NCBI RefSeq assembly: GCF_001908725.1
Contig: NZ_CP018725.1
Coordinates: 248,001-312,000, forward strand
DNA length: 64,000 bases
From: Xanthomonas vesicatoria ATCC 35937
GTDB lineage: Bacteria; Pseudomonadota; Gammaproteobacteria; Xanthomonadales; Xanthomonadaceae
Direction of reading: 5' to 3'
The translations under genes and the position numbers were made by a program. Under the pieces are notes generated by a model. The model saw only the letters and a program-made list of their open reading frames with translations, had not been told where the DNA came from and did no database searches. This document shows, in pieces, positions 39,251-63,217 of the stretch; the first letter of the stretch is position 1, and each line of letters starts with the position of its first letter.

Positions 39251-39263
39251 GTGTCGTCAACCT

Positions 39264-39635
39264 TTACAGCGGCATGTTCATGACGTCCTGATAAGCCTGG
39301 ACGAGACGGTTGCGGACTTCCACGGTGGCGCGGAAGGCCACCTGGGACTGCTGGGAGGCGACCATGACCCGGGCCAGATCGGCATTGGGGTCGCCCATTT
39401 CGAATGCTTTGGATAGTGCGCCGGCTTTCTGCTGGGCCTCGTTGACGCCGCCGATGGCGCCGCGCAAGGTCTCGCTGAAGCTGGGCGCCTGGGTGGCCGG
39501 CGTTCCCTGTGCGCCTGCCAGCCCCTGGATCTGATTACCGCGCGCCGCATCGGCCACCGCACCCATGGGGCCTTGGCCCATCTGCGTCTGGTAGCTGCGG
39601 ATCTGCGAAAGAATCGAGGTAACGGAGTCGCTCAT
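39264..39635 (-). CDS. fliE: Flagellar MS-ring/rod adaptor FliE
   Basis: 123 aa from ATG 39635 (MSDSVTSILSQIRSYQTQMG); the upstream in-frame codons overlap the promoter. Helical C-terminus (VRNRLVQAYQDVMNMPL) matches FliE. First gene of fliEFGHIJK, with a sigma-54 promoter 35 bp before it. Confidence 0.94.
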   Translation of the reverse strand: MSDSVTSILSQIRSYQTQMGQGPMGAVADAARGNQIQGLAGAQGTPATQAPSFSETLRGAIGGVNEAQQKAGALSKAFEMGDPNADLARVMVASQQSQVAFRATVEVRNRLVQAYQDVMNMPL

Positions 39636-39669
39636 GGGTGCGGTCAGCCAGGGAGGCATTCACACCGAT

Positions 39670-39685
39670 GCAAGCGGCGTGCCGA
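39670..39685 (-). promoter_or_regulatory. Sigma-54 promoter of fliE operon
   Basis: Minus strand CGGCACG, CCGC, TTGCA: full -24/-12 match except C for T at the first base. Predicted leader of about 23 nt. Confidence 0.85.
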
Positions 39686-39975
39686 AATCGCGCCGGGATT
39701 CCGGCACCGGGGGCAGGGAGGGGCTGGCGCTGGGTTGCGGGCTGGTCCGCGGCCGCAATCTCTTGGCGGGAGTCTAGAATCGAGCCCCGCGTGGTTGGCG
39801 AAGCTGGCGCTTTATGCGAACCGATTCGGTGGGCAGGCGCGGCTCTGCTCAACCAGTCTGTGTAGCAAGACGTGGGCCTGTCTGGCGGAGAGCGACGGAT
39901 CTGCAGCCCGGCTGCAGGGTCCTTGCCCCCCAATCCCTCACGGGACACGCTGCTAGTAGGTCCCTGTCAGCTCCG

Positions 39976-40180
39976 TGGCGGCATCCATGCCGCCAAGGGT
40001 CCCGCGACGGAGAGCGGGCAAGGACCGGTCGCGTTGATCGGTGCCCAGGGTTTGGGCAACGCAACCAGCAGCCCCGGAGCTGCGCGACGCGGCGGTTCGT
40101 CCTTAGCGAAAACACCAGCCAACGGCCTGGTGCGATGTCCTCACCGCTCGCGGGACCGTTGGCGGCATGGATGCCGCCAT
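39976..40180. repeat. Pair of palindromes upstream of fliE
   Basis: Two short palindromes built on GGCGGCAT-NN-ATGCCGCC-like cores (39976-39995 and 40159-40180) about 160 bp apart. The surrounding GTCCCGCGA/TCGCGGGAC strings also pair, so 39960-40220 could fold into a larger structure. The whole gap 39690-40401 has no gene I can support. Confidence 0.55.
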
Positions 40181-40401
40181 CGAGCCCCCAGGGACGGATT
40201 CACGGCGTGTCCCGCGAGCGGCGAGGGCAGCGCGCCCTCGACCGAGTTGGCTTTTGACACTCTCAACTAACTCGGCTTCCCCCTCTAGATAGATCGCGCT
40301 AAGAACCGATGTCTCTACACCTGTGAGCCATTTGAATCGGGCCGACTACGCGTGATACGGGTGTGCGCATCAGTGTTCGAGCACATCGCGCGGCTGGGTG
40401 A

Positions 40402-43400: not shown

Positions 43401-43944
43401 CGCGGCGTGCCAGCACGCAGCTGGGCTCGCCAATGAAGTTGATGGCGTGGTCGGCCAGGAACGACACCAGCTCAGGCCCGTCGATCAGCACGTCTTCGTT
43501 GAAAGGAAAGCTGGTGGCCAGGATATCCGGCAACGGCGCGCCATCGTCGTCGATGCGCAACCGCCGCGAGGACGCCATTGCCGTGCCCGGGTTGCGCTCG
43601 ATCGCTTCCACCAATTGCGCAATGCAATCGGGCTCCAGCACATCGTCGTCGTGCAGAAACTTGATGTACTCGCCGTGCGCCAGCCCAATGCCTTTGATGG
43701 TGCTGCCGAGTTCGCCGAGGCGCGTCGCGTTGCGGGAGTAGCGGATCGGGAAGGGAGCAGACGCCAAGCGCAGCGCCAGCAGGGACTCGATCGCGCCATC
43801 GCCATTGTCGTCGCAGATCACCAGCTCCAGCGCCGGGTAGGTCTGCGCCAGCACACTGTCCAGCGCCTGCGCGAAATAGCGCGGCTTGAAGGTCGGCATG
43901 ACAATGCTGACGAGGGCAGTCGAAGGTAGGGGAGCGTCAGGCAT
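40402..43944 (-). CDS. Three-module glycosyltransferase
   Basis: 1180 aa from ATG 43944; a TTG at 43986 would add 14 residues; neither has a clear ribosome site. Module 1 (about 1-290) is GT2: ALVSIVMPTFKPRYF, LVICDDNGDG, KFLHDDDVLEPD. Module 2 (about 560-830) is a second GT2-like fold: LVSILVLVDGRLPQVQ, LLLDRDST. Module 3 (about 880-1180) is GT4-like: GCGHYRVIQPLRAL, RIGWAGGASHTGDL, ESGN-type NECKSNLRLLEYGACGYPV. No membrane segments. Lies between the flagellin-sugar genes and fliE; large multi-domain transferases in this place glycosylate flagellin in pseudomonads and xanthomonads. Flagellin as acceptor is inferred. Confidence 0.85.
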   Translation of the reverse strand: MPDAPLPSTALVSIVMPTFKPRYFAQALDSVLAQTYPALELVICDDNGDGAIESLLALRLASAPFPIRYSRNATRLGELGSTIKGIGLAHGEYIKFLHDDDVLEPDCIAQLVEAIERNPGTAMASSRRLRIDDDGAPLPDILATSFPFNEDVLIDGPELVSFLADHAINFIGEPSCVLARRAELLALGNELMMLNGKPIHWVGDLAIYVKLLRHGNLAFLASPLTHFRVSSAQFSQAGRDQVGVGDQGHEDLRQGIRQLGWRRESGDNRQVRVAPLSPHKARVFKSVDLVNALMRSAGMAEQVSPATWLGVRHPSDVQRALIDARLQAHAGGPRIAVMLIDRDGDAAAVAATRASIDAVACYRNQQTWVVSSAPHQLDDHGERGLLIGEAGLVAALNQAIAGQQDVEWVVLVEAGSIFTVSGLTMLALGMIGLPEQCQAVYADEVVALDTAQLGLALRPALYLDVLLSAPSTLSRHWLFRRSGLVADGGFPADLGQAFELGYQLGLVERYGLACVQHIAEPLLVAAAQTRQTDADEQRAIARHLAARGYADARVHSAGPGRHAVEYQHAQQPLVSILVLVDGRLPQVQRCLESILANTAYPHYEVLLLDRDSTAPDLRAWLAGIDALGMQQIRVLRFAAEPVREAVCNAAAEHARGDVLLWLSAGAAVMKADWLEQLLNHALRPEVGAVAGKLLRSDGTVHHAGLLLGLGAPVARAFEGSAFDESGYLQRLQLDQNYTALSGECLMLPRQLFIDAGGFALEPALAQWSDVDLCLRLHQAGYLNVFAARAQLLIDPPDATTATALDEEAMYARWLPVMANDPAYNPGFSLDPGAGFTLADPRASWRPLQSWRPLPSVIALPADIEGCGHYRVIQPLRALREAGLAEGVLFNGYLEIAELARQDPDVVILQRQVGEARLEAMRRMKALSRAFKVYELDDYLPNLPLKNAHREHMPKDILKTVRRGLGMVDRFVVSTPALAEAFAGLHSDIRVAENRLPPHWWEHLPARAERQGGKPRIGWAGGASHTGDLELIADVVKELAGEVEWVFMGMYPFALRQHIHQFQPGVPIDQYPAALAALDLDLALAPVEQNLFNECKSNLRLLEYGACGYPVIASDVRCYQGTLPVTLVKNRYRDWIGAIREHLADLDAARAKGAALREVVRRDWMLSGSNLERWREAWLPD

Positions 43945-44042
43945 CGGCGTGATGAAGGCAGTGGCGAGTAGGGTTATGGCGGTCAAACTGTAGGGGCAAC
44001 AAAGTGCTGGGGTTCGCTAGCGTCGACGTGGCAAACTTGTAG

Positions 44043-44597
44043 TCAGACGTCCGCAGCGTCGATTTGCCTTAGATCGGTGGCAGCCTCTCGCCGCGCAATC
44101 AAATTCAGGTGCCACGGCTCGCTGTCCTGGCCTTCCAGCAGTCTTTGCACGTCGGTGAAGCCGATATCGGTGAGGAGGGATATCAGAGATTCCTCGGTAT
44201 AACCCCACCGATGCGCATCTTCCCTACTGCCTCCGCGTGCCTCGTCGCGCCAACCCCAGAACCCGGCAAATGCATGCAAGTTCTGGTCCTCAAGGGAGCT
44301 GCACTCCAAGCCGAGGAGTTGGCGCGCATGGAATGCGATGTCGGGGACAATCACATGCAGCATGCCCGCAGGTGCAAGTAGCTCGTGCCAGTGCTTCAAT
44401 GTGGCACGCGCATCGTTTGGATCGAGATGTTCCAACATGTGCCGGGAATAGATCTCTACAACGCTACCGACAGGCGAGATCGTGATCGCACCAGCATCAC
44501 AAACGTGGTCGGTAGCCTCAGTCTGCCTTGAGTCAATGTTGAGGTAGCCATCCAGTCGTCTAGAAGCACACCCGACGTGTAGCTTGAGCTCGTTCAT
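44043..44597 (-). CDS. SAM-dependent methyltransferase, small
   Basis: 184 aa. Class I methyltransferase pieces: KLHVGCASRRLDGYLNID, SRHMLEHLDPND, LAPAGMLHVIVPD. This matches the 'predicted SAM-dependent methyltransferase' type common in polysaccharide clusters. Start overlaps the previous gene as ATGA, so the two are one translational unit. Substrate unknown; a sugar hydroxyl is likely. Lower GC than the flagellar genes. Confidence 0.8.
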   Translation of the reverse strand: MNELKLHVGCASRRLDGYLNIDSRQTEATDHVCDAGAITISPVGSVVEIYSRHMLEHLDPNDARATLKHWHELLAPAGMLHVIVPDIAFHARQLLGLECSSLEDQNLHAFAGFWGWRDEARGGSREDAHRWGYTEESLISLLTDIGFTDVQRLLEGQDSEPWHLNLIARREAATDLRQIDAADV

Positions 44598-45388
44598 AGG
44601 TTGGTCACTGCACAGACGACATGAGTGACGTTCTCGTGCCGGATCGAAATATCGTAGATGCGATAGTCAGGAGATTGTTGTCTGAAGAGATACAGCCAAA
44701 CGTCTGGCGGAAAGATTGAGACATGGCTATGGCCGTCGTCGTAGCAAGCGATGACATGAAAATTGAATCGAGCTGTCCGGTGCAAGGAGCGTGTTAACTC
44801 TGCTAGCTCATGGGTCTGGATATGCTCGAGAACATCGGCAGAACAATTGAGGTCAACATGCTCCAAGGTGGAACTGGTCAGATCCTGTTGAGAGAATTCA
44901 ATGTTGTCGCCTTCTGGAAAGTCCGGCGACCTTGCCCAATCCAAGCCAATAACGCGAGGTACTGACTTTGCTATTTCGGCGACGAAGGCGCCATTTCCGC
45001 AGCCAACCTCGCGCACGTTCGTGAACCGACGTTTGCCAAGAAATTTGGTATATGGCATAAGCCAGTTATTGCGTTGAAACAGTGGGTTTTTTTCATGCAA
45101 TTTTTGGTAGTACGCCGCATCCAATACCTTGTCTGCGTATGCGGCAGGAGCGCTGTTTTCGCTCAGTGCGTGTCCGATCGAAGTGTAGGTCGCTGCTAAC
45201 CTTGTATAGAGCGAAATGGAAAGTTCCTTTTGAAGCGCAGCGTCTTTTGAAGTTCCGCCCTTTATTCCTTCGTTCGTAGATACGCTGCCGCTCTCAATCG
45301 TGCTTTCGATCTGTTCAAGACGTTGATTAACCAGTCCTCCCCCCGATCGGGTGAATGCCTCAACCGGAAAGCTGCGTTCCCAGAGCAT
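44594..45388 (-). CDS. SAM-dependent methyltransferase
   Basis: 264 aa. N-terminal about 110 residues helical and unassigned, then class I motifs: VREVGCGNGAFVAEIAK (motif I), VIGLDWARSPDF, NCSADVLEHIQ. It closes with a beta-rich tail. 18 bp after the preceding gene. Probably modifies the glycan or its lipid-linked precursor. AT-richer than its surroundings. Confidence 0.8.
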   Translation of the reverse strand: MLWERSFPVEAFTRSGGGLVNQRLEQIESTIESGSVSTNEGIKGGTSKDAALQKELSISLYTRLAATYTSIGHALSENSAPAAYADKVLDAAYYQKLHEKNPLFQRNNWLMPYTKFLGKRRFTNVREVGCGNGAFVAEIAKSVPRVIGLDWARSPDFPEGDNIEFSQQDLTSSTLEHVDLNCSADVLEHIQTHELAELTRSLHRTARFNFHVIACYDDGHSHVSIFPPDVWLYLFRQQSPDYRIYDISIRHENVTHVVCAVTNL

Positions 45389-45406
45389 GACTTTGGAATA
45401 GTCCCA

Positions 45407-46465
45407 CTAATGATCGAATGTTTCGCGGGCATGGTGATGTGCCACCGCGGGCAAAGCGGGGAGGCGTGGCGCTGCCCGCTCCGGGCATAATAACTGGTGC
45501 CAGAAGGCCGGCGAAAGCAATGTCTGGAAATGAATCTGCTGGTAGATCTGTGTATCGTCATGTCGTTGCTGGTTAAGCGGAACGAATGGTTTAAAAAGCG
45601 TGTGTGCAGTTTTTCCGAACCATTCGGCTTCTTGTAAAAGGCCTGACGAAATGCCAACCAGCTCTACATCCTCACGCGTACCGAGAATCTGGTAAGCATT
45701 GTGCAGGCAGCGGATTGGGGATTGGCCAGTGATTCGCTGTAGAGTTGCCATTTCGGCGCTCGCGGCGCCTTCAGCCATGGGATGCGCTTTGTACATGAGG
45801 CGCCGGCCCTCGCATAGCGTCCTCAACTGCTCAGAAAAGTCCGCGCATTGCAATACATGCCCGCTTGGAGCGATCAATGAAGCATCGTATGGCGCCTGAC
45901 CGACGAAGACGATGCCGCCGTCAAGTGGTGTAAAGGAATATGCGCGCTCGTCGTGCAGGCGACGTCGATGCATTCGCACGTTTGCTGCAAGTGTCGCGGC
46001 CTCGAGACGTAGTTCCTCCGAGCTAACGGCATGCATGGTCAAACGCTTGGTCGCCAACTGCTGCGAACTATACAGCGCCACGTACAGATCACGCGCGAAG
46101 CGAAGCGGCGAGACACGGATATCGAGAAAAGGGATGTTCGCCTGAACGCAGAAATCCATCAGCCACGGCGGCATCTCAAGCGAAATTAATAGGTCGCATG
46201 GCGGCAAGTGCTGCCTCAAATATTCTGCAGCCGCTTGCGGCAGCTGGTAGTAGTGCTTAGACCAAGAGCCAGAATCCGCAAATGCGAGGTTGTGAAAAGA
46301 ATCCAGATCAAAGCCATGGTGGTGGCAGTATTCGCTATCGAGTGCAAAGCCGATCTCGATTCCTGAGCCCTGTAAAATGGGTTCTCTGATCAGATCGAAA
46401 AAAGCTTCCGGAAAGACTCGCGTATCTCTCAGTAAATCTGGAACCAGAATGATGTTGGTGGTCAT
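45407..46465 (-). CDS. Unidentified glycan-cluster protein
   Basis: 352 aa, no signal peptide or membrane span. Two Rossmann-like halves are suggested: NIILVPDLLRDTRVFP with DLLISLEMPPWLMDF, and GGIVFVGQAPYDASLI with RRLMYKAHPMAEG. The YKAHP motif recalls the Y-x-x-HP seen in CMP/UDP-dependent capsule transferases (KpsC/KpsS-like), so a glycosyltransferase is possible; this is weak. Low GC. Preceded by 185 bp with no gene, so it may have its own promoter and mark a block boundary. Confidence 0.55.
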   Translation of the reverse strand: MTTNIILVPDLLRDTRVFPEAFFDLIREPILQGSGIEIGFALDSEYCHHHGFDLDSFHNLAFADSGSWSKHYYQLPQAAAEYLRQHLPPCDLLISLEMPPWLMDFCVQANIPFLDIRVSPLRFARDLYVALYSSQQLATKRLTMHAVSSEELRLEAATLAANVRMHRRRLHDERAYSFTPLDGGIVFVGQAPYDASLIAPSGHVLQCADFSEQLRTLCEGRRLMYKAHPMAEGAASAEMATLQRITGQSPIRCLHNAYQILGTREDVELVGISSGLLQEAEWFGKTAHTLFKPFVPLNQQRHDDTQIYQQIHFQTLLSPAFWHQLLCPERAAPRLPALPAVAHHHARETFDH

Positions 46466-46650
46466 CTTAATGTGTATCCAATACAGGAATTCTGACTGTC
46501 TGAAATAAAGAATAGTTTCGTGGAAGAGTACGGCCCTATGCTTTTAAGAAATTTCTGATATTTCTGGGAACTCGGGAAGGGTCGAATTGAAATTTTTTTG
46601 CGGGCGTCGGTCATCGCTCCACCCTTTCCAATTCATGAAGTTTCTCAGGC

Positions 46651-48174
46651 TCACATCGCCCAGGGCGGCGGTGCGGCACCGGCGACGGGCGATGCATACA
46701 AAACGAGGTCGTAGTAGTGGCCAGGAGAGTGCTGGCGTAGGCGGAAGTGATAGCCTTCCACCAATCTGTCCAGTTGTTCCACGATATCCAGTAAGTCCTG
46801 GGCGTAGTGGTAGACACAAATAGCCATACGGGGGCGCTGGGTCCGGATCAGGTGAGATGCGCCCTCTAGTGCCCTGGCTTCGAACCCTTCGATGTCCAAC
46901 TTCAGTAGCGTCAGCTTTTCCAGTTCATCGTCCAGGCGCGTAGTCGCCACGGAGATGCCGCCGTTCGGCGATACATGGCTGGAAACGGTGCCCGTCTCCT
47001 CAAAGCGCAGCGTCGCATGTTCGTTAGAGATGGCTTTTTTGATGGCCTTGAAATTGTGCGGGGGAATTGGGAGAGCACTCGCGATGCCCTCCAATGTCTG
47101 GAAGTTGATGCTATCGGGTTCAAAGGCGGTGATGCTTTCGTAGCGATAGCGGGACGCGTCGATAAATTTATGCACGACTGGGCCCTGGAAGGCACCGCCA
47201 TCGCAGAAATGTTCACTCTGGCCGAGCTGGAATGTGCTGCTATCAGCATATTCTGAAAAGTACTCGTTGATCGGCGTAGCCCAGCAGTCCAACAGGAAGC
47301 TGGAATCGTAGGTCACGCGGAACAACAGGTTGCTGTAGAGCGTAAAGACGCTTAAATCATCGTCCAGTCGATCTGCAAACCGCAGAAATTCGTCTAGGCG
47401 CAGAAGCGTCCGCTGACGGTATACCTGGGCAGGCTCGTATACGGCGAGCAGTCCGCAGTGAGCAACCGCCATGCAGGCATCTACCCTTTCAATGCCTGCT
47501 TGATCGCAGAGCTTGCGGGCCAAGCCCGATTCCTTCGGGCTGTAAGAAAAATCGATGGCTAACGCCTGGGAATGCTGGGCCGCTTGCTCGATGAACTGGC
47601 GCGAACTCCAACGCGGAACCCCATGAACGGTGTCGCTGTCGCTTGGCTGATCATCAACGGCGGCAATGATATGGCTGGAGCGCTGGACGATCTGTGGGCC
47701 ATAAATGTTGCCAAGGCCCGAGCGCGGTTGGAGCAAAAAAAGGGGGCGCTGCTCGAAATGTGGGATCAGCGGTTCCAAAGAAGGCGCCACGCTCAGTTGC
47801 TCAATGCCCGCGCTGGTGCAGATGTCGTGTGCAAACGCCCGTCCGCGCGGGCTGCAAGCGAAATCGATAGCGATCGCATCGGCATATTGCCCAGCCTTGG
47901 CAAGAAACTCCTGACTGCTCCAGCGCGGCGCGCCGTGGATGTGGTCCAGGTGGGTGTTTTGGTCATCAATTGCGGCAACAACATGGCGCAGGTCAGCAAC
48001 GACCCTGGGACCATGCACCATACCGATATAAGACTCGGGAGCGACGAGGAATACCGGGCGGTTGGCAATCGCGGGTAGGCGCGCAATGACATCCTCAAGC
48101 GCAGGGCGCTCTTGCTCCGCAATACGCAGAATTTGTTCGCGAAGCTGCTCGTTTCTTGAGTTCATGAACGTCAT
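46651..48174 (-). CDS. FkbM methyltransferase with duplicated N-domain
   Basis: 507 aa from ATG 48174, which overlaps the upstream stop as ATGA. C-terminal about 210 residues are an FkbM O-methyltransferase: SITAFEPDSINFQTLEG, LLKLDIEGFEARALEGA, RMAICVYHYAQDL. The N-terminal half contains two about 90-residue copies of one module: RPVFLVAPESYIGMVHGP with HGAPRWSSQEFL, and RPLFLLQPRSGLGNIYGP with HGVPRWSSRQFI; each ends IAIDF(A/S)(C/Y)SP. The modules look like alpha/beta units and carry no family I know. The fusion suggests substrate channelling or binding of the sugar intermediate before methylation. Confidence 0.8.
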   Translation of the reverse strand: MTFMNSRNEQLREQILRIAEQERPALEDVIARLPAIANRPVFLVAPESYIGMVHGPRVVADLRHVVAAIDDQNTHLDHIHGAPRWSSQEFLAKAGQYADAIAIDFACSPRGRAFAHDICTSAGIEQLSVAPSLEPLIPHFEQRPLFLLQPRSGLGNIYGPQIVQRSSHIIAAVDDQPSDSDTVHGVPRWSSRQFIEQAAQHSQALAIDFSYSPKESGLARKLCDQAGIERVDACMAVAHCGLLAVYEPAQVYRQRTLLRLDEFLRFADRLDDDLSVFTLYSNLLFRVTYDSSFLLDCWATPINEYFSEYADSSTFQLGQSEHFCDGGAFQGPVVHKFIDASRYRYESITAFEPDSINFQTLEGIASALPIPPHNFKAIKKAISNEHATLRFEETGTVSSHVSPNGGISVATTRLDDELEKLTLLKLDIEGFEARALEGASHLIRTQRPRMAICVYHYAQDLLDIVEQLDRLVEGYHFRLRQHSPGHYYDLVLYASPVAGAAPPPWAM

Positions 48175-48794
48175 GTCCCGTAAGTATGAATGGGGCTGTC
48201 GTAGCGGGCGTTGAAATAGGTCTTCGCAGGCACGTCCTCGCAGTAGGCACGCGGCCAGCCAAGTTCGCAGCTTCGCCCCACCTTGACGCCCTCCCGCACA
48301 ATGGCGCCGGTCCGCAGGATGCTGTTGCCGCCGATCTCGACGCCCGCGCCGATTTGCACACCATTCTCTATCCAGCATGAAGATTTGACGCGGCATGCCG
48401 GTCCGAGGTGCGCGCCGGCATGGATGACGGTGTTGTAGTCGATCCTGCACCCGTGCCCGACGACCGCATTGGCACCCACGAATGCGTTAAGCCCGATGAC
48501 CGTGTCAGATCCGATGGCTGCGCTGGCATGGATGAAGGGCTCCAGCTTGAAGCCACGTTGCAGCGCTGCCTGCATCAGTTCTGTGCGCTTGAAGTTGCCG
48601 AGGCGTTCGTCAAATGCCACGAACATGGCCCCGTCACTTGGATTCAGTCCATCCAGTATGCGGAAATCGAATTCGTGTTTCTCGTCTTGCGGGACATCGA
48701 TCTTGATGACCGCCTCATCCTGACGCGCCTGTTTCCAGCCATGAAAAGCCAGGTCGAGGTAGTCGCTGCTGCCGATGATCCACCTAGATTTCAT
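48171..48794 (-). CDS. NeuD/PglD-like sugar acyltransferase 1
   Basis: 207 aa. Short N-terminal Rossmann-like part (KSRWIIGSSDYLDLAFHGW), then a left-handed beta-helix of hexapeptide repeats (IGSDTVIGLNAFVGANAVVG, IDYNTVIHAGAHLG, VQIGAGVEIGGNS). This is the trimeric sugar N-acyltransferase type that acylates a 4-amino-sugar nucleotide. The first 11 bp overlap the Rieske gene. With the second acyltransferase at 49942, two acylation steps are implied. Confidence 0.82.
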   Translation of the reverse strand: MKSRWIIGSSDYLDLAFHGWKQARQDEAVIKIDVPQDEKHEFDFRILDGLNPSDGAMFVAFDERLGNFKRTELMQAALQRGFKLEPFIHASAAIGSDTVIGLNAFVGANAVVGHGCRIDYNTVIHAGAHLGPACRVKSSCWIENGVQIGAGVEIGGNSILRTGAIVREGVKVGRSCELGWPRAYCEDVPAKTYFNARYDSPIHTYGT

Positions 48795-49929
48795 GGTCGG
48801 TCTCCATCAGCGTCGTGTACCAGCGCTCGACCAGGCGATTCATGGATTCATAGGCTCCCTGGATGGGCAGAGGCGCGTCTGTGTGCAATGCCGCCTGTAC
48901 CCGCTCCATGATGTCCACGTCTTCGCCCACCACCACCTTGCTGCCGTGCATCTGTGCCAGTAGCACTTGGCTGGAAGAACCGTAAGGCTGTTTCTTGCGT
49001 GCGCTAAACCAATAGATTTCCAGGTCGGTTGTGTCCGGCCCAACGGGGATATGGTGCTCCAGGGTGAAGGAATAACCGCCGTTGCCACTGGCGATATGCA
49101 GGTTTGGGAAGGCCAGCCAGTTGAAGTAGGCATCCTGCTTGCCCCAGCGTTCCACTTTATCGTGCCAGTGGAAGTGCTTGAGGTTAGGTATAGGTGCTTC
49201 CGCGCCACCGAAACTGAAGCGGCGCATCTCGCGCCTCAAGGCAGAGGGCGATGTGCCCTGCAAGGCCTCCATGGACTCCTTGGCTTGTTCCTCGTTCACC
49301 TGCGGAACGAAGCTGACGCTCTTGGCCAGGGTCTTGGGGTGGACGAAGCGCGGGTGATTGGCATCCCGAAGATTTTCGTAAGCGAGTTTCCAGTTGTACC
49401 GGCCACGCCATGTGGTCACCATGACCTCAGTGTCGTAGGCGTTGGAACTACTTTCCAGCAAGGCGATGAAGTCAGGCGAAAACTGCTCCTCAATCGGCAT
49501 CGGGTTGGGGGCGAGGTTGACGAACAGCAGATTTCCCATCTCACGCAAGGCGAACTCCCGCAATTTCAGACTACGTCGTTCGTCCTCGCCGAAGCCATAA
49601 AAGGCATCGCATTCGGGGATACTCTCTACCCGGCCGTCGGCATCGTACTTCCATGCATGGTAGGGGCAGACGAGCGGACGCCTTCCCACTGCGGTGGTCT
49701 GCAGCAGTGCGCTGCGGTGCAGGCAGACGTTCTCGAATGCGCGCAGCCGGCCCTGGAAATTCTGGATCAGCACCGGAATGCCGGCGAGCCTGCGGGTGAT
49801 GAAGCAGTTGTTATCAGGCACCAGCATCTTGAGGCCGGCAAACAGCCAAGCCTTGCGGAAGATCTTGCGCTGTTCGCGGGCGAAGATGTCCGTCGACAGG
49901 TAGTAGCTGGGGTGCATTCGCGATCGCAT
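48784..49929 (-). CDS. Rieske non-heme iron oxygenase, alpha subunit
   Basis: 381 aa. Rieske [2Fe-2S] ligands CLH and CPYH are present (NVCLHRSALLQ ... VCPYHAWKYD, residues about 70-91). The mononuclear iron site DANHPRFVH (D, H, H) and a C-terminal catalytic domain follow. Enzymes of this family hydroxylate, demethylate or desaturate small molecules using a separate reductase, which is not encoded nearby. Within a sugar-acyl operon the likely target is the acyl chain or the deoxysugar; that is inference. Start ATG 49929; ATG at codon 5 is possible. Confidence 0.88.
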   Translation of the reverse strand: MRSRMHPSYYLSTDIFAREQRKIFRKAWLFAGLKMLVPDNNCFITRRLAGIPVLIQNFQGRLRAFENVCLHRSALLQTTAVGRRPLVCPYHAWKYDADGRVESIPECDAFYGFGEDERRSLKLREFALREMGNLLFVNLAPNPMPIEEQFSPDFIALLESSSNAYDTEVMVTTWRGRYNWKLAYENLRDANHPRFVHPKTLAKSVSFVPQVNEEQAKESMEALQGTSPSALRREMRRFSFGGAEAPIPNLKHFHWHDKVERWGKQDAYFNWLAFPNLHIASGNGGYSFTLEHHIPVGPDTTDLEIYWFSARKKQPYGSSSQVLLAQMHGSKVVVGEDVDIMERVQAALHTDAPLPIQGAYESMNRLVERWYTTLMETDHEI

Positions 49930-49941
49930 CGGCGCGGCTTC

Positions 49942-50607
49942 TCAAGAATCCTTGTGGTAAATGACCCTGGCCGGGTTGCCAAACACGCTGGCGCCGGCCG
50001 GCACGTCCTTGACCACGACTGCACCGGCGCCGACCACAGCGCCGTCGCCGATGTGGATGCCGGGCAGGATGGTAGCGTGGGGGTGGATCGCTACCTCATT
50101 GCCAATCACCACGCCGCCGCCGATGAAAACGAAGCTGCCGATCTGCACGTAGTCGCCGATGCTGACCTCGTGCGCGATGATCGAGGTAGAGAGCACGGTG
50201 ACGAATTCGCCGAGCCGGCTGCCGGAGCCGATGGAGACGCGCGAATCGAACACGCTGCCCCGGCCTATGTAACCGGCAGCTGCTTCGCGCGAGGGGGGAG
50301 GATGGAACACAATGAAGTCGGCGCCCTTTTCGATAAGCGCCTGGGCATAGTGCCGCCTCGCCGCGGGGTTGCCGATTGCGCAGATGAAGATGTCGCCTTC
50401 CACCGGTTGGTAGGTTGCAGGGTCGCCGACGATCGGCCAGCGCGATGTGCCCTGCAAATGCGTGCGATCATCCAGGAAACCCTTGATATCCCATTCGACA
50501 CCATGCGCCGGGTCCTGGTGATACGCCAGCGACGCGATGTCTCGTGCGAAGCCACCCGCGCCAACGATCAGCAGGTGATAGGGCGGAGTGGATGCATCGG
50601 CTGTCAT
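49942..50607 (-). CDS. NeuD/PglD-like sugar acyltransferase 2
   Basis: 221 aa from ATG 50607 (ATGA overlap with the previous gene). N-terminal dinucleotide-type domain YHLLIVGAGGFARDIAS, then hexapeptide repeats (GRGSVFDSRVSIGSGSRLG, VQIGSFVFIGGGVVIGNEV, IHIGDGAVVGAGAVVVKDV). The complete PglD layout suggests transfer of an acyl group to the amino sugar made by the aminotransferase at 53475. Donor may be acetyl-CoA or the ACP-bound chain made here. Confidence 0.88.
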   Translation of the reverse strand: MTADASTPPYHLLIVGAGGFARDIASLAYHQDPAHGVEWDIKGFLDDRTHLQGTSRWPIVGDPATYQPVEGDIFICAIGNPAARRHYAQALIEKGADFIVFHPPPSREAAAGYIGRGSVFDSRVSIGSGSRLGEFVTVLSTSIIAHEVSIGDYVQIGSFVFIGGGVVIGNEVAIHPHATILPGIHIGDGAVVGAGAVVVKDVPAGASVFGNPARVIYHKDS

Positions 50608-51383
50608 ACGAATTCCACACCTCCATCCATGCTGAAGGCCTGTCCGGTTACCTTGCTGCTCGCATCGGACAGAAAATACAGGCACGCCATCGCCACGTCC
50701 TCCGGCTGGCCGATGCCGAGCGGGTAGCGCTTGCGGCTTTCTTCGAACCAGGCCTTGTCTTCGTTGATCAGCGATGTCTCGACCAAACCGGGGCACAGTG
50801 CATTTGCACGAATCTTGCGGCGCGCCAATTCCAGCGCCAGCGGGCGCAAGGTTCCGATCAGAGCGGCCTTTGATCCTGCATACGGACCGACACCGACGGT
50901 ACCCGTGAGCGCGGCGATGGACGACAGAAAGATCACCGAAGCGCCGAGCCGCAGTGACTGGCGTGCCAATAAGTGCCTGGTCAACATCACTGGTGCGAGA
51001 TAATTGATGTCCATGACCTCGCGCAAAAACTTTTCGCTGACCAATTTCATGGGCGCAAGCCCACGAATGCCGGCGCTATGAACTACGCCGTCAAGTTGCC
51101 CGCAGGTAGTGGCCAACTGCTGCAACACGGTTGCGTCGCTCAAGTCGCCAACGAACAGGCAATGGCCTTCGCCATGCAGCGACGCCAGCACGGTGCGCAG
51201 GCGCTGTTCGTCACGTCCGGCAACGACCATTCGCGCACCTGCACCGGCACAGGCCCGTGCAACGGCCTCGCCAATGCCTTTGGACGCGCCGGTAACCAGA
51301 ATTGTCTTGCCGGCCAGCCCAAACAAGGTGTGCAGCAGCACTGAGGTGGCGTCCGTGGAATGCATGGTGGTCTGGCTGCTCAT
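50604..51383 (-). CDS. Short-chain reductase 2 (FabG-like)
   Basis: 259 aa. NAD(P) motif TGASKGIG, catalytic S (FLSSIAALTG) and YxxxK (YAGSKAAL), structural N (DINYLAPVML). The C-terminal SKVTGQAFSMDGGVEFV fits FabG-like reductases. Both ends overlap neighbours by 4 bp. Likely reduces the 3-ketoacyl-ACP made by the KAS III-like enzyme; a sugar dehydrogenase role cannot be excluded. Confidence 0.88.
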   Translation of the reverse strand: MSSQTTMHSTDATSVLLHTLFGLAGKTILVTGASKGIGEAVARACAGAGARMVVAGRDEQRLRTVLASLHGEGHCLFVGDLSDATVLQQLATTCGQLDGVVHSAGIRGLAPMKLVSEKFLREVMDINYLAPVMLTRHLLARQSLRLGASVIFLSSIAALTGTVGVGPYAGSKAALIGTLRPLALELARRKIRANALCPGLVETSLINEDKAWFEESRKRYPLGIGQPEDVAMACLYFLSDASSKVTGQAFSMDGGVEFV

Positions 51384-52147
51384 AGGCGAATCGGCAAGGA
51401 AATGCCACCGTCGATGGTCAAGGTGCTTCGTGTGATCCAGCGGCTCGCGGCAGACAACAGATATGCCACGCCGTTTGCAACGTCGTTTGGGTCGATGCGT
51501 CCAAGTGGTGTCAGTCCGATCTTGTCGTCCATGTCCGCAGCGACGCCCAACTTTTTCAGCATCGGCGTGTCGACATAGCCGGGCGCAATGCAGTTTGCGC
51601 GGATGCCGTGCTTGGCTTGCTCAAGCGCGAGCGTGCGCACAGCTGCCTCCAATGCGGCCTTGGATGCGGCGTAGCCGGCAGCGGCCTGTGGTGCGGCGCG
51701 TGCAGAGAGCGCAGACACGTAGACCAGCGATGCGCCTTCGGCCAGCCGCCGTTTGAAAAGCAATTGCTGCGTCAAGGTGATCGGTGCCAGATAATTGATC
51801 GACAGCATGTGCTGCAGATGTTTTTCTGCCGCCATCCGGAATGGCACAAGTGCAGCGACGCCTGCGCATGAGGCAACGCCGTGATAGCGCTCGGATGCCC
51901 CCAATAAGCGGACCCGGGTCTGCTCGTCGGTCAGGTCGCCCGCGATGACGCTGTGACCACTCCCAGCCAAGTCGGCAGCTACATCTTCCAAACGTTGCAT
52001 GTCGCGGCCATTGAGCACGACAGTGGCGCCTAACCGGGCGCATAACGTAGCAACTGCTGCGCCGATACCCGAGGACGCACCCGTGACCAAGATTGTTTTA
52101 TCGATCAGCCCGAATGCATCGGTTGTTGCGATTGAAGCCATGCTCAT
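51380..52147 (-). CDS. Short-chain reductase 1
   Basis: 255 aa from ATG 52147, overlapping the KAS III stop as ATGA. TGASSGIG, N in SINYLAPITL, S in YVSALSARA and YAASKAAL are present. It is a paralogue of the next gene (same length and the same NYLAP phrase), so the operon carries two divergent reductases, possibly one for the acyl chain and one for the sugar ring. Confidence 0.88.
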   Translation of the reverse strand: MSMASIATTDAFGLIDKTILVTGASSGIGAAVATLCARLGATVVLNGRDMQRLEDVAADLAGSGHSVIAGDLTDEQTRVRLLGASERYHGVASCAGVAALVPFRMAAEKHLQHMLSINYLAPITLTQQLLFKRRLAEGASLVYVSALSARAAPQAAAGYAASKAALEAAVRTLALEQAKHGIRANCIAPGYVDTPMLKKLGVAADMDDKIGLTPLGRIDPNDVANGVAYLLSAASRWITRSTLTIDGGISLPIRL

Positions 52148-53184
52148 GACTCGATCAGACCTGGAAACACTGCACCATCGATCTCCACCAGACAGGTACC
52201 CCACGACAGCCCGATGCCGAAGCCACACAGCAGCACGCGCTTGGGTCCTGATTCCAGTTCCTTGTTGATGCGTGCGGTCATCGTTACCGGCAGCGATGCG
52301 CCACTAGTGTTGCCGAAATCGCGCAACGTGGAGGGCACCTTTTCCAACGGCAGGCCAAGCTTCTTGCGGATGGTCTCGTTGATCATGCGATTGGCCTGGT
52401 GGAAGACGAAGTAATCCACCTCGTCCTTGGACATGCCGGTGTAGTCGAGTAGCTTCTGTACCGCAGGCGGAATGCGTTGGGTTGAAAAGCTCAGCACTGC
52501 CACGCCATCCAGTTGCAGGTCTACACCACGCTTCCACGCACCGTCTGGCTCATCGCGATACGGCACCAAGTGCTGCATGCCGACCGGCTCCCGATGCCCG
52601 CCCACTGGCAGGATGATCGCCCTGTAGCCGCTGCCATCGCTGTTGAGGTCGAAATGCATCGGCGGTGCGTCTGCACTGAATTCCAGCGCGGTAGCGGTAC
52701 CGGAGTCGGAGAAGATCGGGTCTTCCAGGTTTGCGCTGCGGTCGCCCACCAGCAGCAGGCCCTTCTTGACGCCGCCGGCGGCGATCATCGAGCCGAGCAG
52801 GTTGATGCCGAACGGGTAGGCCGAGCAGCCCAGGTTGACGTCGAACGCCACCGTGGCATGCGACAGGCCGAGCCGGTCCTGCAGGATGATGGCGGTGGCT
52901 GGAATCGGATAGTCCGGCGATTGCGTCACCACGATCAGTGCATCGATCTCTTCGCGCTTCCACTGCAGCTTTTCCAGCAGCACTTCCGTCGCATCGAAGG
53001 CCATGTCGGAGAAGCACTGCCACTCCGAGGCCATGCGCCGCGTCTCGATGCCGATGTTGCGCACCAGGCGCTCGCGCTCGGAACGGATCTGCGGCCGGCA
53101 ATCGGTGAGATTGGACACGACCCGCTTCGGCACGCAGGTCGCCATGCCGGCAAAGCGGACGTTGTGCAGCGTGGAGGTCGGCAT
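52144..53184 (-). CDS. 3-oxoacyl-ACP synthase III-like enzyme
   Basis: 346 aa. FabH fold with the catalytic triad: C120 (DVNLGCSAYPFG), His in YFVFHQANRMI and Asn in DFGNTSGASLP. It would condense acetyl- (or longer) CoA with malonyl-ACP to a 3-ketoacyl chain on the dedicated ACP encoded one base upstream. Pseudomonas syringae flagellin-sugar clusters contain a similar enzyme (called VioT). It does not look like the housekeeping FabH. Confidence 0.9.
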   Translation of the reverse strand: MPTSTLHNVRFAGMATCVPKRVVSNLTDCRPQIRSERERLVRNIGIETRRMASEWQCFSDMAFDATEVLLEKLQWKREEIDALIVVTQSPDYPIPATAIILQDRLGLSHATVAFDVNLGCSAYPFGINLLGSMIAAGGVKKGLLLVGDRSANLEDPIFSDSGTATALEFSADAPPMHFDLNSDGSGYRAIILPVGGHREPVGMQHLVPYRDEPDGAWKRGVDLQLDGVAVLSFSTQRIPPAVQKLLDYTGMSKDEVDYFVFHQANRMINETIRKKLGLPLEKVPSTLRDFGNTSGASLPVTMTARINKELESGPKRVLLCGFGIGLSWGTCLVEIDGAVFPGLIES

Positions 53185-53185
53185 G

Positions 53186-53410
53186 TTACGCCTCGGTCAG
53201 TTTATAGAGATCGCCCACAGTGATTGCAGTGGTCAAGTCATCGCCGGTGATGGTCTTGCTGTATTCCATGTCGAACATGACGATCACGCCCAGCGCGGCC
53301 AGCGAATCCCACTCCGGCAATTCCAGCAGCACGGTGTCCAACGTGACCTCCACCGGTTCCTGGAAGTCGGTGGCGGAGAGGAAGTTCTCGATAAATGTTG
53401 CCTGGGTCAT
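53186..53410 (-). CDS. Dedicated acyl carrier protein
   Basis: 74 aa, acidic, helical. Phosphopantetheine Ser36 in PEWDSLAALGVIVMFD matches the DSL motif. It carries the chain built by the KAS III-like enzyme and reductase until an acyltransferase moves it to the amino sugar. Coupled tightly to the synthase gene; 64 bp after the aminotransferase stop. Confidence 0.88.
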   Translation of the reverse strand: MTQATFIENFLSATDFQEPVEVTLDTVLLELPEWDSLAALGVIVMFDMEYSKTITGDDLTTAITVGDLYKLTEA

Positions 53411-53474
53411 ACGATCTCGCCTGGTTGCCTGTTGAAGAGATGGGAGTCTGAAGTGCAGATGCAGCGTGTTGCGA

Positions 53475-54584
53475 TCATGTTGCCTGTGCGCCGGCGATCA
53501 GGTCGGCGATGCTGTCGACCTGATCGCTGTGCAAGCCGGGAAAGATCGGTAGGCACAACACCTGCGCCGCCACCGAACGCGCCACCGGCAGCCATGCCGG
53601 CGCCGACGAGGGCAGGGCGCGATACATCGGGAAATCGCTGATCAATGGATAGAAATAACGTCGTACCAGAATGCCGTGCTCGCGCATCAATTGGTATAGC
53701 GCATCGCGCGCCAGCGGGTAGTCGTCCTGCACCAGGATCGGAAAATACGCATGATTGGCGCTGGAATGCTGCGGTGCTGCGACGCAGCGGATGCCGCGCA
53801 CCTCGCTCAATCGTTGCCGGTACTGCGCATCGATGGCGCTGCGTTGCGCAATGGCCTCGTCGATGTGCTTGAGCTGCAACAGGCCGAACGCTGCGCTGAT
53901 CTCGTTCATCTTGCCGTTGATGCCCGGCGCCACCACCGTGGTTTCGTCGACGAAGCCGAAATTCTTCAGATGCCCGATGCGTTGATAGGTCCTTTCGTCC
54001 GGGCACACGATGGCGCCGCCCTCGAAGGTGTTGAACACCTTGGTGGCATGAAAGCTCAACACGCTGAGGTCGCCGTGGCGCAGGATGGAGCCGCCGTCAT
54101 CGCGTACGCCAAACGCATGCGCCGCGTCGTAGATCACCTTGAGGTTGTAGATGTCGGCGATGCGCGTGATGGCAGTGGTATCGCACGCGGTGCCATAGCA
54201 GTGCACCGGCATGATCGCGGTGGTCTGCGGGGTGATGGCCGCTTCGATCTTGGACGGATCCATGTTGAGGGTCACCGGGTCGATATCCACGAACACCGGG
54301 GTGATGCTTTTCCACAGCAGCGAATGCGCCGTGGCCACGAACGAGTAGGGCGTGGTGATCACTTCGCCGGTGATGCGCAGCGCCTGCAAGGCGGTGATCA
54401 ACGCGGTGGTGCCATTGGTCAGCAGGGCCAGGTGCGGCACGCCCAGGTAGTCGCACAGCGCCTGCTCGAGCGCACGGTGCATCTCGCCCCCGTTGCTGAC
54501 GATGCGACTGGTCCAGATCCGTTCCAGATACGGCAGAAAGTCTTCCAGCGGCGGCAGCAGCGGACTGGTGACGGGGATGGGCAT
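53475..54584 (-). CDS. Sugar-nucleotide aminotransferase (VioA-like)
   Basis: 369 aa from ATG 54584, with GAGG 7 nt upstream; the TTG at 54587 is rejected. DegT/DnrJ/EryC1 PLP enzyme: LTNGTTALITALQAL, VIYDAAHAFG (Asp that holds the pyridine ring) and the PLP lysine K182 in SFHATKVFNTFEGG. It installs the amino group on a 4-keto- or 3-keto-6-deoxyhexose nucleotide such as dTDP-4-amino-4,6-dideoxyglucose (viosamine). First gene of the sigma-54 glycan operon. Confidence 0.9.
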   Translation of the reverse strand: MPIPVTSPLLPPLEDFLPYLERIWTSRIVSNGGEMHRALEQALCDYLGVPHLALLTNGTTALITALQALRITGEVITTPYSFVATAHSLLWKSITPVFVDIDPVTLNMDPSKIEAAITPQTTAIMPVHCYGTACDTTAITRIADIYNLKVIYDAAHAFGVRDDGGSILRHGDLSVLSFHATKVFNTFEGGAIVCPDERTYQRIGHLKNFGFVDETTVVAPGINGKMNEISAAFGLLQLKHIDEAIAQRSAIDAQYRQRLSEVRGIRCVAAPQHSSANHAYFPILVQDDYPLARDALYQLMREHGILVRRYFYPLISDFPMYRALPSSAPAWLPVARSVAAQVLCLPIFPGLHSDQVDSIADLIAGAQAT

Positions 54585-54659
54585 CAATGCCTCGCTGGGA
54601 CGGGTGAATGTCGGGATTCCGCCGCAGCCGATGGCTGCGGTCGGTCTACTCCGGAGGAA

Positions 54660-54674
54660 GCAAGCGCTATGCCA
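54660..54674 (-). promoter_or_regulatory. Sigma-54 promoter of glycan operon
   Basis: Minus strand TGGCATA, GCGC, TTGCT: fits TGGCAYR-N4-TTGCW exactly. It lies in the short gap between fleQ and the aminotransferase, with a predicted leader of about 64 nt. This ties sugar synthesis to the flagellar regulon. Confidence 0.82.
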
Positions 54675-54701
54675 GCGGGCGCTGGCGGAGCCGTGGCCGG
54701 C

Positions 54702-56178
<1,477 letters not shown>

Positions 56179-56186
<8 letters not shown>

Positions 56187-56562
56187 TCCTGGCTCCTTCC
56201 GTCAGGCCCTCCAGGATTGGCATGACTTCCTGGATATAGGACAGCTTGCTGACAAAATTGTCAGCACCCGCGCGAAGAGCGTGTTCACGATGCTCGGCAT
56301 CGTCGAAGTGGCTCGCGATGACAATATACGGCGGATCATCCTGTGTCTTGATCAGACGCGTGGCCTGCAGGCCGCCCATCTCGGGCATGGCCAGATCCAT
56401 CAGTACGACATTGGGGCGCAGCGACTCAGAGCGCTCGATCGCTTCCAGCCCATTGGCGGCACTGCCCACGATGTTGAGCCACTCCACTTTGCGAAAATGA
56501 CGCATCGCAGCGTTGATGAAGCCCTCGTGGTCGTCGACCAGCAGCACGGTGAGTTTGCTCAT
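56179..56562 (-). CDS. Stand-alone receiver between rpoN2 and fleQ
   Basis: 127 aa. LLVDDHEG acid pair, phospho-acceptor D56 (VVLMDLAMPEMGG), conserved I/V-A-S (IVIASHFDD) and K in FVSKLS. There is no output domain, so it works by protein contact. Its place between rpoN2 and fleQ suggests that it tunes sigma-54 activation. No histidine kinase is near. Gene identity beyond 'receiver' not known to me. Confidence 0.88.
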
Positions 56563-61922: not shown

Positions 61923-63122
61923 TTACTGCAGCAGGCTCAGCACGTTCTGCGGAACCGACTTGGCCTGGGCCAGCATCGCGGTACCAGCCTGCTGCAGGAT
62001 CTGCGTGCGGGTCAGCTCTGCGGTGGTCTTGGCGTAGTCCGTATCCGCGATGCGGCTACGTGATGCGGACAGGTTCTCCGAGGTCGCGCTCAAGTTGGCG
62101 ATGGTGGAGGTGAAGCGTTTCTGCACCGCACCCATGTCGGCGCGCGAGGAGTTGACCGTGGTCAATGCCTTGTCGACGATTTCAAGGGCCTTCTGCGCGC
62201 CGGAGAACGTGGAGATATCCAGGCTGCCCAGGGTCGAAGCGGTCGAGCCGGACGCGGCCGAGGCGGTGGTGATGCCGGCGCCGACGGTGATGCCAGCGGC
62301 GCTGGAGGTACCGGCCGACAGCGAGGTGAAGTCCTGGCCAGCCTTCAGCGATTCGATCTGCAGCGTACCGTCGGTCTTGATCGAGGCATACATGCCGGTC
62401 TGGTCCAGCTTGTCGTTGATCGCCGCGGCCACCTTCTTGTTCACGTCAGCCGCAGTGTCGCCGGCACCGACCTTGACGTCGGCGATGGTGACGCTCTTGG
62501 CCGAGCCGCTGGCGTCATTGAACGACAGGCTGATGCCGCTGACCGAACCCGAGGCGGTGGCGGTGCCGCTCACACCGGCGCCGGAGACGGCGGCAGCGAA
62601 GCTGGCCTTGCCCAGCGAATCGATGTTGGCGTCGGCGATGCTGTTGATGCCGATGGTCTGGCCAGCATCGGCACCGACCTGGAACAGCGCGCCGCTGAAC
62701 GAGCCGTCGAGCAGCTTGGTGCCGTTGAAGCTGGTCTGATTGGCGACGCGGTCGATTTCGCTGGTCAGCTGCTTGACTTCGGAGTTCAGCGCTTCGCGGT
62801 CGGTGGACGAGTTGGTCGCATTTGCCGACTGCACCGACAGCTCGCGGATACGCTGCAGGTTGTTGCCGATTTCCTGCATCGCGCCTTCAGCGGTCTGGGA
62901 CAGCGAGATGCCGTCGTTGGCGTTGCGCGAGGCGACGTCCAGGCCACGGATCTGAGTCGTGAAGCGCTCGGCGATTGCGCCGCCGGCCGCATCGACCGAG
63001 AAGCTGGTGATGCGCTTGCCCGAGGACAGCTGCTGGATGCTCAGCGCCAGGCTGGAGCTGTTGGTGTTGAGGTTACGCTGAGCGTTCAGCGACATTACGT
63101 TGGTGTTGATTACCTGTGCCAT
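61923..63122 (-). CDS. fliC: Flagellin FliC
   Basis: 399 aa from ATG 63122 ([18 protein letters not shown]). Conserved D0/D1 ends ([24 protein letters not shown] is antisense and ignored; C-terminal [20 protein letters not shown]) enclose a Ser/Thr/Ala/Gly-rich variable part (about 170-300), the expected place of O-glycosylation. The plant-recognised flg22 stretch is residues 30-51, [19 protein letters not shown]..., with Val at position 43. There is no upstream second flagellin. Sigma-28 promoter at 63218. Confidence 0.97.
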
Positions 63123-63217
63123 TTTGATTTCTCCTAAGCGATTTTTCCGGCAAGGGGGACTTGCCCGGAGCCTCCGCAGGGGGGCCATCAAGTTGGCCGT
63201 TGCCGCTGCTGAGATGA

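What the first reader, a model, noticed from the sequence alone, without database searches (positions are those of the whole stretch)
46651..54674. Flagellar sigma-54 operon that builds its own acyl chain for an amino sugar
Nine tightly overlapping genes encode an aminotransferase, a private ACP, a KAS III-like synthase, two reductases, two NeuD/PglD-type acyltransferases, a Rieske oxygenase and an FkbM methyltransferase, led by an exact sigma-54 promoter and next to fleQ. Seen directly: motifs, overlaps, promoter. Known: P. syringae flagellin carries a 3-hydroxybutanoyl-type modified viosamine made by related aminotransferase, synthase and reductase genes. Inferred: here the chain is made on an ACP, reduced, moved to the sugar, then oxidised and methylated, giving a glycan not yet described.
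Basis: partly seen in the sequence, partly recalled or inferred. Interest (0 to 1): 0.75.

Follow-up and report, generated by a model that had tools for sequence, protein, structure and literature searches.

The report
Flagellin sugar-coat operon of Xanthomonas
This is one Xanthomonas bacterium's version of an already studied operon thought to build an acyl-tipped amino sugar for the flagellum; the newer points are that its middle genes appear to be swapped between species and that a gene next door resembles an enzyme that attaches an acidic eight-carbon sugar.

Summary
The nine genes are real, with intact motifs, in the stated order. They are not a new system: the same gene classes in the same place are the gigX flagellin-glycosylation island of X. 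oryzae pv. oryzae (2018; known to me through reviews and recall), and the ACP/KAS III/reductase route to an acylated amino sugar was proposed for the P. syringae viosamine island in 2011. The sigma-54 site is not exact (2 mismatches), but 25 of 27 Xanthomonas loci have it. Two things go beyond the finding. (1) The aminotransferase-ACP-KAS head is conserved, but the reductase/reductase/acyltransferase cassette comes in three allele types whose distribution over the flanking-gene tree is no better than shuffled (9 changes against 9.9). The junction lies inside the KAS gene. Twelve middle architectures occur in 18 Xanthomonas loci. (2) Downstream, a protein without Pfam match is by fold and profile a relative of GT140, a retaining Kdo transferase family founded in January 2026, with its catalytic residues conserved; in this window that gene is cut short by an in-frame stop. 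Best reading: a modular locus that diversifies the flagellin glycan. Glycan structure and all enzyme steps here are inferred.

The parts
54659..54675 (-). sigma-54 (-24/-12) promoter-like site CTGGCATAGCGCTTGCT
   Evidence: 2 mismatches to consensus; TGGCAY-N5-TTGCTT kept at -81 to -94 in 25 of 27 Xanthomonas loci
53475..54587 (-). DegT-family sugar aminotransferase (VioA/DesI-like); gigX1 counterpart
   Evidence: PF01041 E 2e-98; best NCBIfam DesI, below cut-off; best PDB hit 2po3
53186..53410 (-). acyl carrier protein, 74 aa, DSL motif
   Evidence: no Pfam/NCBIfam match; DSL motif; counterpart XCV2012 called acyl carrier protein in print
52144..53184 (-). KAS III-like 3-oxoacyl-ACP synthase; exchange junction near 52650
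   Evidence: PF08541/PF08545; C120/H262/N292; junction
51380..52147 (-). SDR reductase 1, cassette type I (start taken at the ATG that overlaps the KAS stop; searches used 51380-52144)
   Evidence: PF13561 E 1e-41; type I vs II vs III
50604..51383 (-). SDR reductase 2, cassette type I
   Evidence: PF13561 E 2e-46
49942..50607 (-). NeuD/PglD/VioB-type N-acyltransferase, cassette type I
   Evidence: TIGR03570 over cut-off; best PDB hit VioB 7txp
48784..49929 (-). Rieske non-haem iron oxygenase, type I
   Evidence: PF00355 + PF00848; 89-92% identity in the 16 best hits
48171..48794 (-). second hexapeptide acyltransferase
   Evidence: PF00132; NeuD_NnaD below cut-off
46651..48165 (-). FkbM-family methyltransferase with duplicated N-terminal segment
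   Evidence: TIGR01444 over cut-off; repeat 43% identical
45407..46465 (-). GT140-related (KrkA-like retaining Kdo transferase) domain, cut short by a stop
44594..45388 (-). methyltransferase domain; in one frame with the GT140 domain in L007
   Evidence: PF08241; fused 623-aa frame in L007
44043..44597 (-). small SAM methyltransferase-like protein
   Evidence: PF13489
40402..43986 (-). 1194-aa glycosyltransferase (VioT-size), likely transfers sugar to the flagellin glycan
   Evidence: PF00535 E 3e-32, two stretches
54702..56186 (-). fleQ, sigma-54 activator (neighbour, likely regulator)
   Evidence: ORF; same order in 27 Xanthomonas loci
61923..63191 (-). fliC flagellin (presumed substrate)
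   Evidence: PF00669 and PF00700

Best explanation
The locus is a gigX-type flagellin glycosylation operon, read from a sigma-54/FleQ promoter. dTDP-4-keto-6-deoxyglucose (RmlA/RmlB encoded elsewhere) is aminated to dTDP-viosamine by the aminotransferase. KAS III and the private ACP make a short 3-oxoacyl chain, one or both SDRs reduce it, and the NeuD/VioB-like enzyme moves it to the 4-amino group. The Rieske enzyme hydroxylates the acyl group or sugar, the second hexapeptide enzyme acylates, FkbM O-methylates, and the 1194-aa glycosyltransferase caps flagellin glycans. The head (aminotransferase-ACP-KAS 5' half) is conserved in the genus, while the reductase/acyltransferase, oxygenase and methyltransferase/GT140 modules are exchanged between species by crossover in shared genes, so related species carry different caps. 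Shown in relatives (literature): flagellin glycosylation by gigX; the mVio structure and genes in P. syringae. Shown here: gene content, conserved promoter site, mosaic. Inferred: every enzyme step, the order of steps and the product.
For: Families and motifs. Best PDB hits: VioB for the acyltransferase and 2po3, recalled as DesI, for the aminotransferase. RmlB and RmlA over cut-off at C1:2.04 Mb. gigX in reviews. Vio pathway. The same classes in order, XCV2000-2013, in print for X. euvesicatoria; X. oryzae PXO99A has aminotransferase, ACP, KAS and GT as '1' and reductases, acetyltransferase and Rieske as '1*' (meaning of '*' not seen). The X. campestris gene next to fleQ is named vioA, nucleotide sugar transaminase (PMC7280030). 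Promoter site in 25 of 27 loci. Order KAS-SDR-NeuD-Rieske in 28 of 28 Xanthomonas loci. Mosaic: cassette labels need 9 changes on the flank tree, shuffled mean 9.9, as low in 63 of 200; KAS 5' half 10 changes against 9.3, KAS 3' half 4 against 9.3, 0 of 500 as low (type II against the rest); identity step near 52650. In Pseudomonas dryadis the module follows a flagellin gene.
Against: The gigX paper itself was not held, and no X. oryzae locus could be compared gene by gene. NCBIfam equivalogs for the aminotransferase score below cut-off, so viosamine is not proven. The module is not universal: 4 of 35 Xanthomonas genomes lack the KAS, and the 2013 table has '0' for KAS, ACP, reductases and Rieske in X. 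campestris ATCC 33913. It is not always flagellar: in two Oxalicibacterium loci the aminotransferase at that place is only 28% identical, and four ORFs upstream in L028 match no flagellar family. The KAS 5'-half tree is poorly resolved (4 of 25 branches starred), so its random-looking label count is weak evidence. No single KAS residue tracks cassette type. Type I is not uniform: L005 has SDR1 81% and NeuD 61% identical to the window. The Rieske type alone is somewhat clustered on the tree (5 changes against 7.1, 19 of 500 as low, L005 left out).
Confidence: 0.8

Rival explanations
1. The operon modifies LPS or another surface glycan and only happens to lie among flagellar genes.
For: Similar enzymes occur in LPS loci (general knowledge); in Oxalicibacterium L028 the ORFs upstream of the module match no flagellar family.
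Against: fleQ stands next to it in 27 of 27 Xanthomonas loci that reach that flank, conserved sigma-54 site, gigX flagellin data in reviews.
Confidence: 0.06
2. Flagellin is the target, but the sugar is another 4-amino-4,6-dideoxyhexose or the acyl chain is not a 3-hydroxyacyl group (for example longer, branched or further oxidised).
For: Aminotransferase and acyltransferase scores do not fix the sugar; two SDRs and a Rieske enzyme are more than the P. syringae list holds; SDR1 alleles are 46-49% identical between types I and II.
Against: Closest solved relatives are VioB and the 2po3 aminotransferase; the P. syringae island makes the 3-hydroxybutanoyl form.
Confidence: 0.35
3. The cassette mosaic reflects old duplicated alleles lost at random, not exchange between species.
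For: L005 carries both Rieske types.
Against: At least 8 label changes are forced on well supported branches; the step lies inside a single KAS gene; none of the 28 Xanthomonas loci shows two SDR cassettes in the stretch held.
Confidence: 0.15

Closest known systems
gigX flagellin glycosylation island, X. oryzae pv. oryzae (Yu et al. 2018, doi 10.1111/mpp.12543; paper not held, abstract recalled, seen through passages of two reviews)
   Same: Gene classes and order as recalled: transaminase, ACP, 3-oxoacyl-ACP synthase, reductase, dehydrogenase, acetyltransferase, ring-hydroxylating dioxygenase, hypothetical, methyltransferase, glycosyltransferase; RpoN2/FleQ control
   Different: Against the recalled list the window has three extra ORFs (cut-short GT140 relative and two methyltransferase-like proteins) before the glycosyltransferase; X. 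oryzae KAS is 90% identical; the other X. oryzae genes were not compared here
Viosamine island of Pseudomonas syringae (PMC3927599; abstract, passages and section 2.3 seen)
   Same: Aminotransferase, acyltransferase, ACP, 3-oxoacyl-ACP synthase III, reductase, methyltransferase, 1173-aa glycosyltransferase
   Different: Seven ORFs between gs and hk; its Table 1 lists one reductase and no Rieske enzyme, second hexapeptide protein or GT140-like protein
Flagellin glycosylation islands of Enterobacteriaceae (PMC4875605; passages seen)
   Same: Variable, horizontally exchanged islands; some types with ACP, FabG and other chain genes
   Different: Other gene sets; the words Rieske and dioxygenase do not occur in its text
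KrkA of E. coli K13, founder of GT140 (PMC12887879; abstract and passages seen)
   Same: Fold, QxxxD nucleophile motif, general-base Glu and active-site His in the window's 352-aa protein
   Different: KrkA builds capsule with a ribosyltransferase partner; the window's copy is cut short and lies in a flagellar operon

Membership tests
gigX-type flagellin glycosylation island | Aminotransferase-ACP-KAS III-two SDRs-acyltransferase-Rieske-...-glycosyltransferase next to fleQ | tested here: met
   order of gigX recalled, partly confirmed
gigX-type flagellin glycosylation island | sigma-54/FleQ-controlled transcription | tested here: inconclusive
   conserved promoter-like site; no expression data
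gigX-type flagellin glycosylation island | loss of flagellin glycan mass in mutants | not testable with these tools
   needs mass spectrometry
P. syringae viosamine island | vioA, vioS, vioR, acp, vioB, vioM, vioT gene set making mVio | tested here: inconclusive
   same classes present, but no direct comparison with the vio proteins was made and sugar identity is unproven
GT140 | KrkA-like fold and QxxxD nucleophile with general-base Glu | tested here: met
GT140 as a working enzyme in this strain | whole domain, with the C-terminal loop that holds the Kdo-contacting Trp in KrkA | tested here: not met
   the window's frame ends before the part aligned to KrkA residues 346-359; the copies in three other Xanthomonas genomes have no stop inside. 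I therefore call it a GT140 relative cut short, not a working member
GT140 | Kdo transfer with retention | not testable with these tools
   needs an assay

The most novel reading that the evidence does not exclude
Xanthomonas diversifies its flagellin cap as O-antigen loci do: a fixed viosamine-ACP-KAS head feeds interchangeable acyl, oxygenase, methyl and ulosonic-acid modules, exchanged between species by crossover inside shared genes (KAS III; FkbM). Some lineages thereby add Kdo or a Kdo-like acid to the flagellin glycan, through GT140 enzymes (4 of 35 genomes, one of them cut short) or through a module with its own CMP-Kdo synthetase-like gene.
Probability: 0.45. Interest if true: 0.65.

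Novelty: new variant of a known kind. Interest (0 to 1): 0.45.

Why it matters
Flagellin is a main signal by which plants detect bacteria, and its glycans are thought to shield it (PMC8364246, passages). If close relatives differ mainly in a swapped acyl/oxygenase/methyl cassette, the glycan coat is a fast-changing trait in the genus, like O-antigen, and the cassettes predict which structures to look for. The GT140 link gives a testable function to a family named in January 2026 whose founder is a capsule enzyme, in a flagellar setting that its paper does not mention ('flagell' 0 times in its main text).

Tried and rejected
An idea that KAS specificity residues co-vary with the reductase cassette was tested and dropped: no KAS site shares more than 0.45 bits with cassette type, although residues 201-220 are the variable hot spot (mean entropy 0.92 against 0.01-0.42 in the other blocks).

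The downstream flank as a second control was uninformative: the GT 3'-half tree has 12 rows and 2 starred branches of 9; 2 changes against 3.6, 32 of 500 as low.

A first fold of the 352-aa protein without an alignment was useless (pLDDT 36.7); the second, on 51 rows, was good. No convincing PDB relative was found for the 424-aa protein c23 (best E 0.033).

Sigma-70 promoters: none found in 39000-56300 (4.1 expected); terminator-like sites no more than in shuffles (11 against 12.7), so transcript ends are unknown. No tRNA in the window.

In print or not: the searches, and the passages I then opened, showed nothing on cassette exchange in the Xanthomonas island; none of them asked for recombination inside the KAS gene or for GT140 in flagellar loci, so absence is not established. 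A 2013 table already shows these genes as variable ones, without comment in the passages I saw.
Full report
WHAT IS THERE. The window is part of a 5.35-Mb Xanthomonas genome; genus by nearest relatives, species not determined. Four of eight junctions overlap, the rest are 1-64 bases apart. Expected active-site motifs (recalled) are present. The ACP-sized protein has no family match; it is called ACP by size, DSL motif, place, and the printed name of its counterpart XCV2012.

PROMOTER. The site at 54659-54675(-) reads CTGGCATAGCGCTTGCT. It is not exact: two mismatches to the 17-base consensus, and such sites are common by chance (22 found in the window against 9.7 expected). Its conservation is the evidence: TGGCAY-N5-TTGCTT lies 81-94 bases upstream of the aminotransferase frame in 25 of 27 Xanthomonas loci in which that gene was found; L034 differs at one more base and L036 has no such site. 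Of the four non-Xanthomonas loci scanned, none has it at that place; the other four were not scanned.

THE OPERON IS LONGER. After a 185-base gap of 41.6% GC come a 352-aa protein, two methyltransferase-like proteins and a 1194-aa protein with two family-2 glycosyltransferase stretches. GC falls from 66% (fleQ) through 57% (FkbM) to 50-57% and returns to 67% in the glycosyltransferase. That all are one transcript is inferred.

KNOWN SYSTEM. X. oryzae gigX1-10 are RpoN2/FleQ-regulated (PMC8657755, passages) and determine flagellin glycosylation by MALDI-TOF (PMC6859632, passages). The source paper was not held; its gene list is recalled: transaminase, ACP, 3-oxoacyl-ACP synthase, reductase, dehydrogenase, acetyltransferase, ring-hydroxylating dioxygenase, hypothetical protein, methyltransferase, glycosyltransferase. 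A 2013 table (PMC3826837, passages) prints a like order for X. euvesicatoria 85-10 (XCV2000 glycosyltransferase to XCV2013 aminotransferase, next to fleQ XCV2014). By its columns (header) X. oryzae PXO99A has '1' for aminotransferase, ACP, synthase and glycosyltransferase and '1*' for reductases, acetyltransferase and Rieske; I did not see what '*' means. X. campestris ATCC 33913 has '0' for synthase, ACP, reductases, acetyltransferase and Rieske. The X. campestris gene by fleQ is named vioA, nucleotide sugar transaminase (PMC7280030, passages). The idea that the acyl chain is made on an ACP, reduced and moved to viosamine is from P. syringae (PMC3927599; vioS, vioR, acp, vioB; abstract, passages and one section). 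So the core claim of the finding is right in kind but not new.

SUGAR SUPPLY. RmlB and RmlA are encoded over their cut-offs at C1:2,041,794 and C1:2,040,818, so dTDP-4-keto-6-deoxyglucose should be available.

RELATED LOCI. One scan of named genomes gave 36 loci: 28 Xanthomonas and 8 others. KAS, SDR, NeuD and Rieske follow in this order in 28 of 28 Xanthomonas loci (L039 has only part of KAS). In the held genomes of the genus, 27 of 35 have a KAS over its whole length at 89% identity or more to the X. oryzae protein, 3 have one at 71%, 1 a partial one at 92%, and 4 only KAS proteins near 30%.

MOSAIC. The SDR1-SDR2-NeuD cassette occurs as type I (window and 10 loci), type II (17 loci; SDR1 46-49% identical to the window's) and type III (L006). 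Type II goes with Rieske type I in 17 of 17; type I goes with Rieske I (3 of 11, the window among them), Rieske II (7 of 11) or both (L005). On a tree of 28 rows from the fleQ-side flank (window and 27 loci, L039 left out; 13 of 25 inner branches starred) the cassette label needs 9 changes, shuffled mean 9.9, as low in 63 of 200; starred branches alone force 8. With types I and II only it is 8 against 8.8, as low in 181 of 500. Of the window's four nearest relatives one is type I and three type II. In L019, L020, L023 and L014 identity to the window is 88-99% (83% at one place in L023) through aminotransferase, ACP and KAS 5' half, falls to 63-76% near 52512, and is 43-68% in the first reductase, while the more distant L013 and L027, with the same cassette type, stay at 74-97% throughout. 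L005, also type I, falls to 61-79% there: type I has sub-alleles. Splitting KAS: label changes are 10 on the 5'-half tree (shuffled 9.3) and 4 on the 3'-half tree (shuffled 9.3; 0 of 500 as low), type II against the rest. The 5'-half tree is weakly resolved (4 of 25 starred). I read this as crossover inside KAS. A second sign: in L007 the last third of the FkbM gene (92% identical over 31%) stands just before the GT140 gene while the genes before it differ. Rieske type alone is partly clustered on the tree (5 changes against 7.1, 19 of 500 as low, L005 left out; 4 against 4.7, 146 of 500, in the main clade). With a 55% identity threshold, 18 Xanthomonas loci in which the end glycosyltransferase is in view (window included) show 12 middle architectures, NeuD sub-alleles counted; 11 Xanthomonas loci are not in this count, because the stretch held ends too early or that glycosyltransferase is under 55% (L015, L016, L018). 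Related modules occur in Pseudomonas (in L029 right after a flagellin gene), Oxalicibacterium, Burkholderia and Pseudacidovorax.

VERDICT. Real, well described in kind, member of the gigX/viosamine class of islands by gene content; new points are the cassette exchange with a junction inside KAS and the GT140 relative. I score interest 0.45: the nine-gene claim alone would be lower.

Noticed in passing
46651-48165 (-): The FkbM protein carries a duplicated segment of about 100 residues (residues 21-124 and 128-228, 43% identical) before the methyltransferase domain; role unknown.
   Followed up: partly
45407-46465 and 44594-45388 (-): A GT140-related (KrkA-like Kdo transferase) domain is parted from its methyltransferase half by an in-frame stop; intact fused relatives exist.
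   Followed up: yes
L005:13237-16185: Xanthomonas sp. 3793 carries both Rieske types in one operon, as if caught between two states.
   Followed up: partly
L039:10001-10645: X. arboricola pv. juglandis CFBP 2528 holds only the 3' part of KAS (residues 132-346), with different genes upstream; possible deletion of the fleQ-aminotransferase-ACP stretch.
   Followed up: no
52144-53184 (-), residues 201-220: KAS III hot spot of amino-acid variation among 27 Xanthomonas rows (mean entropy 0.92 against 0.01-0.42 in the other blocks), not explained by cassette type.
   Followed up: partly
related protein P0086: A KAS III 84% identical to the window's is labelled Pseudomonas aeruginosa (599 member sequences); it may belong to the a-type flagellin island (recalled, not tested).
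   Followed up: no
L028 and L030: In Oxalicibacterium the module, with a GT140 homologue at 42-43%, has only a distant (28%) aminotransferase in place, and four ORFs upstream in L028 match no flagellar family.
   Followed up: partly
L031:16749-18020 and its cluster c23: A 424-aa protein with no Pfam or NCBIfam match and no convincing PDB match lies before the CMP-Kdo synthetase-like gene in 8 of 36 loci.
   Followed up: partly
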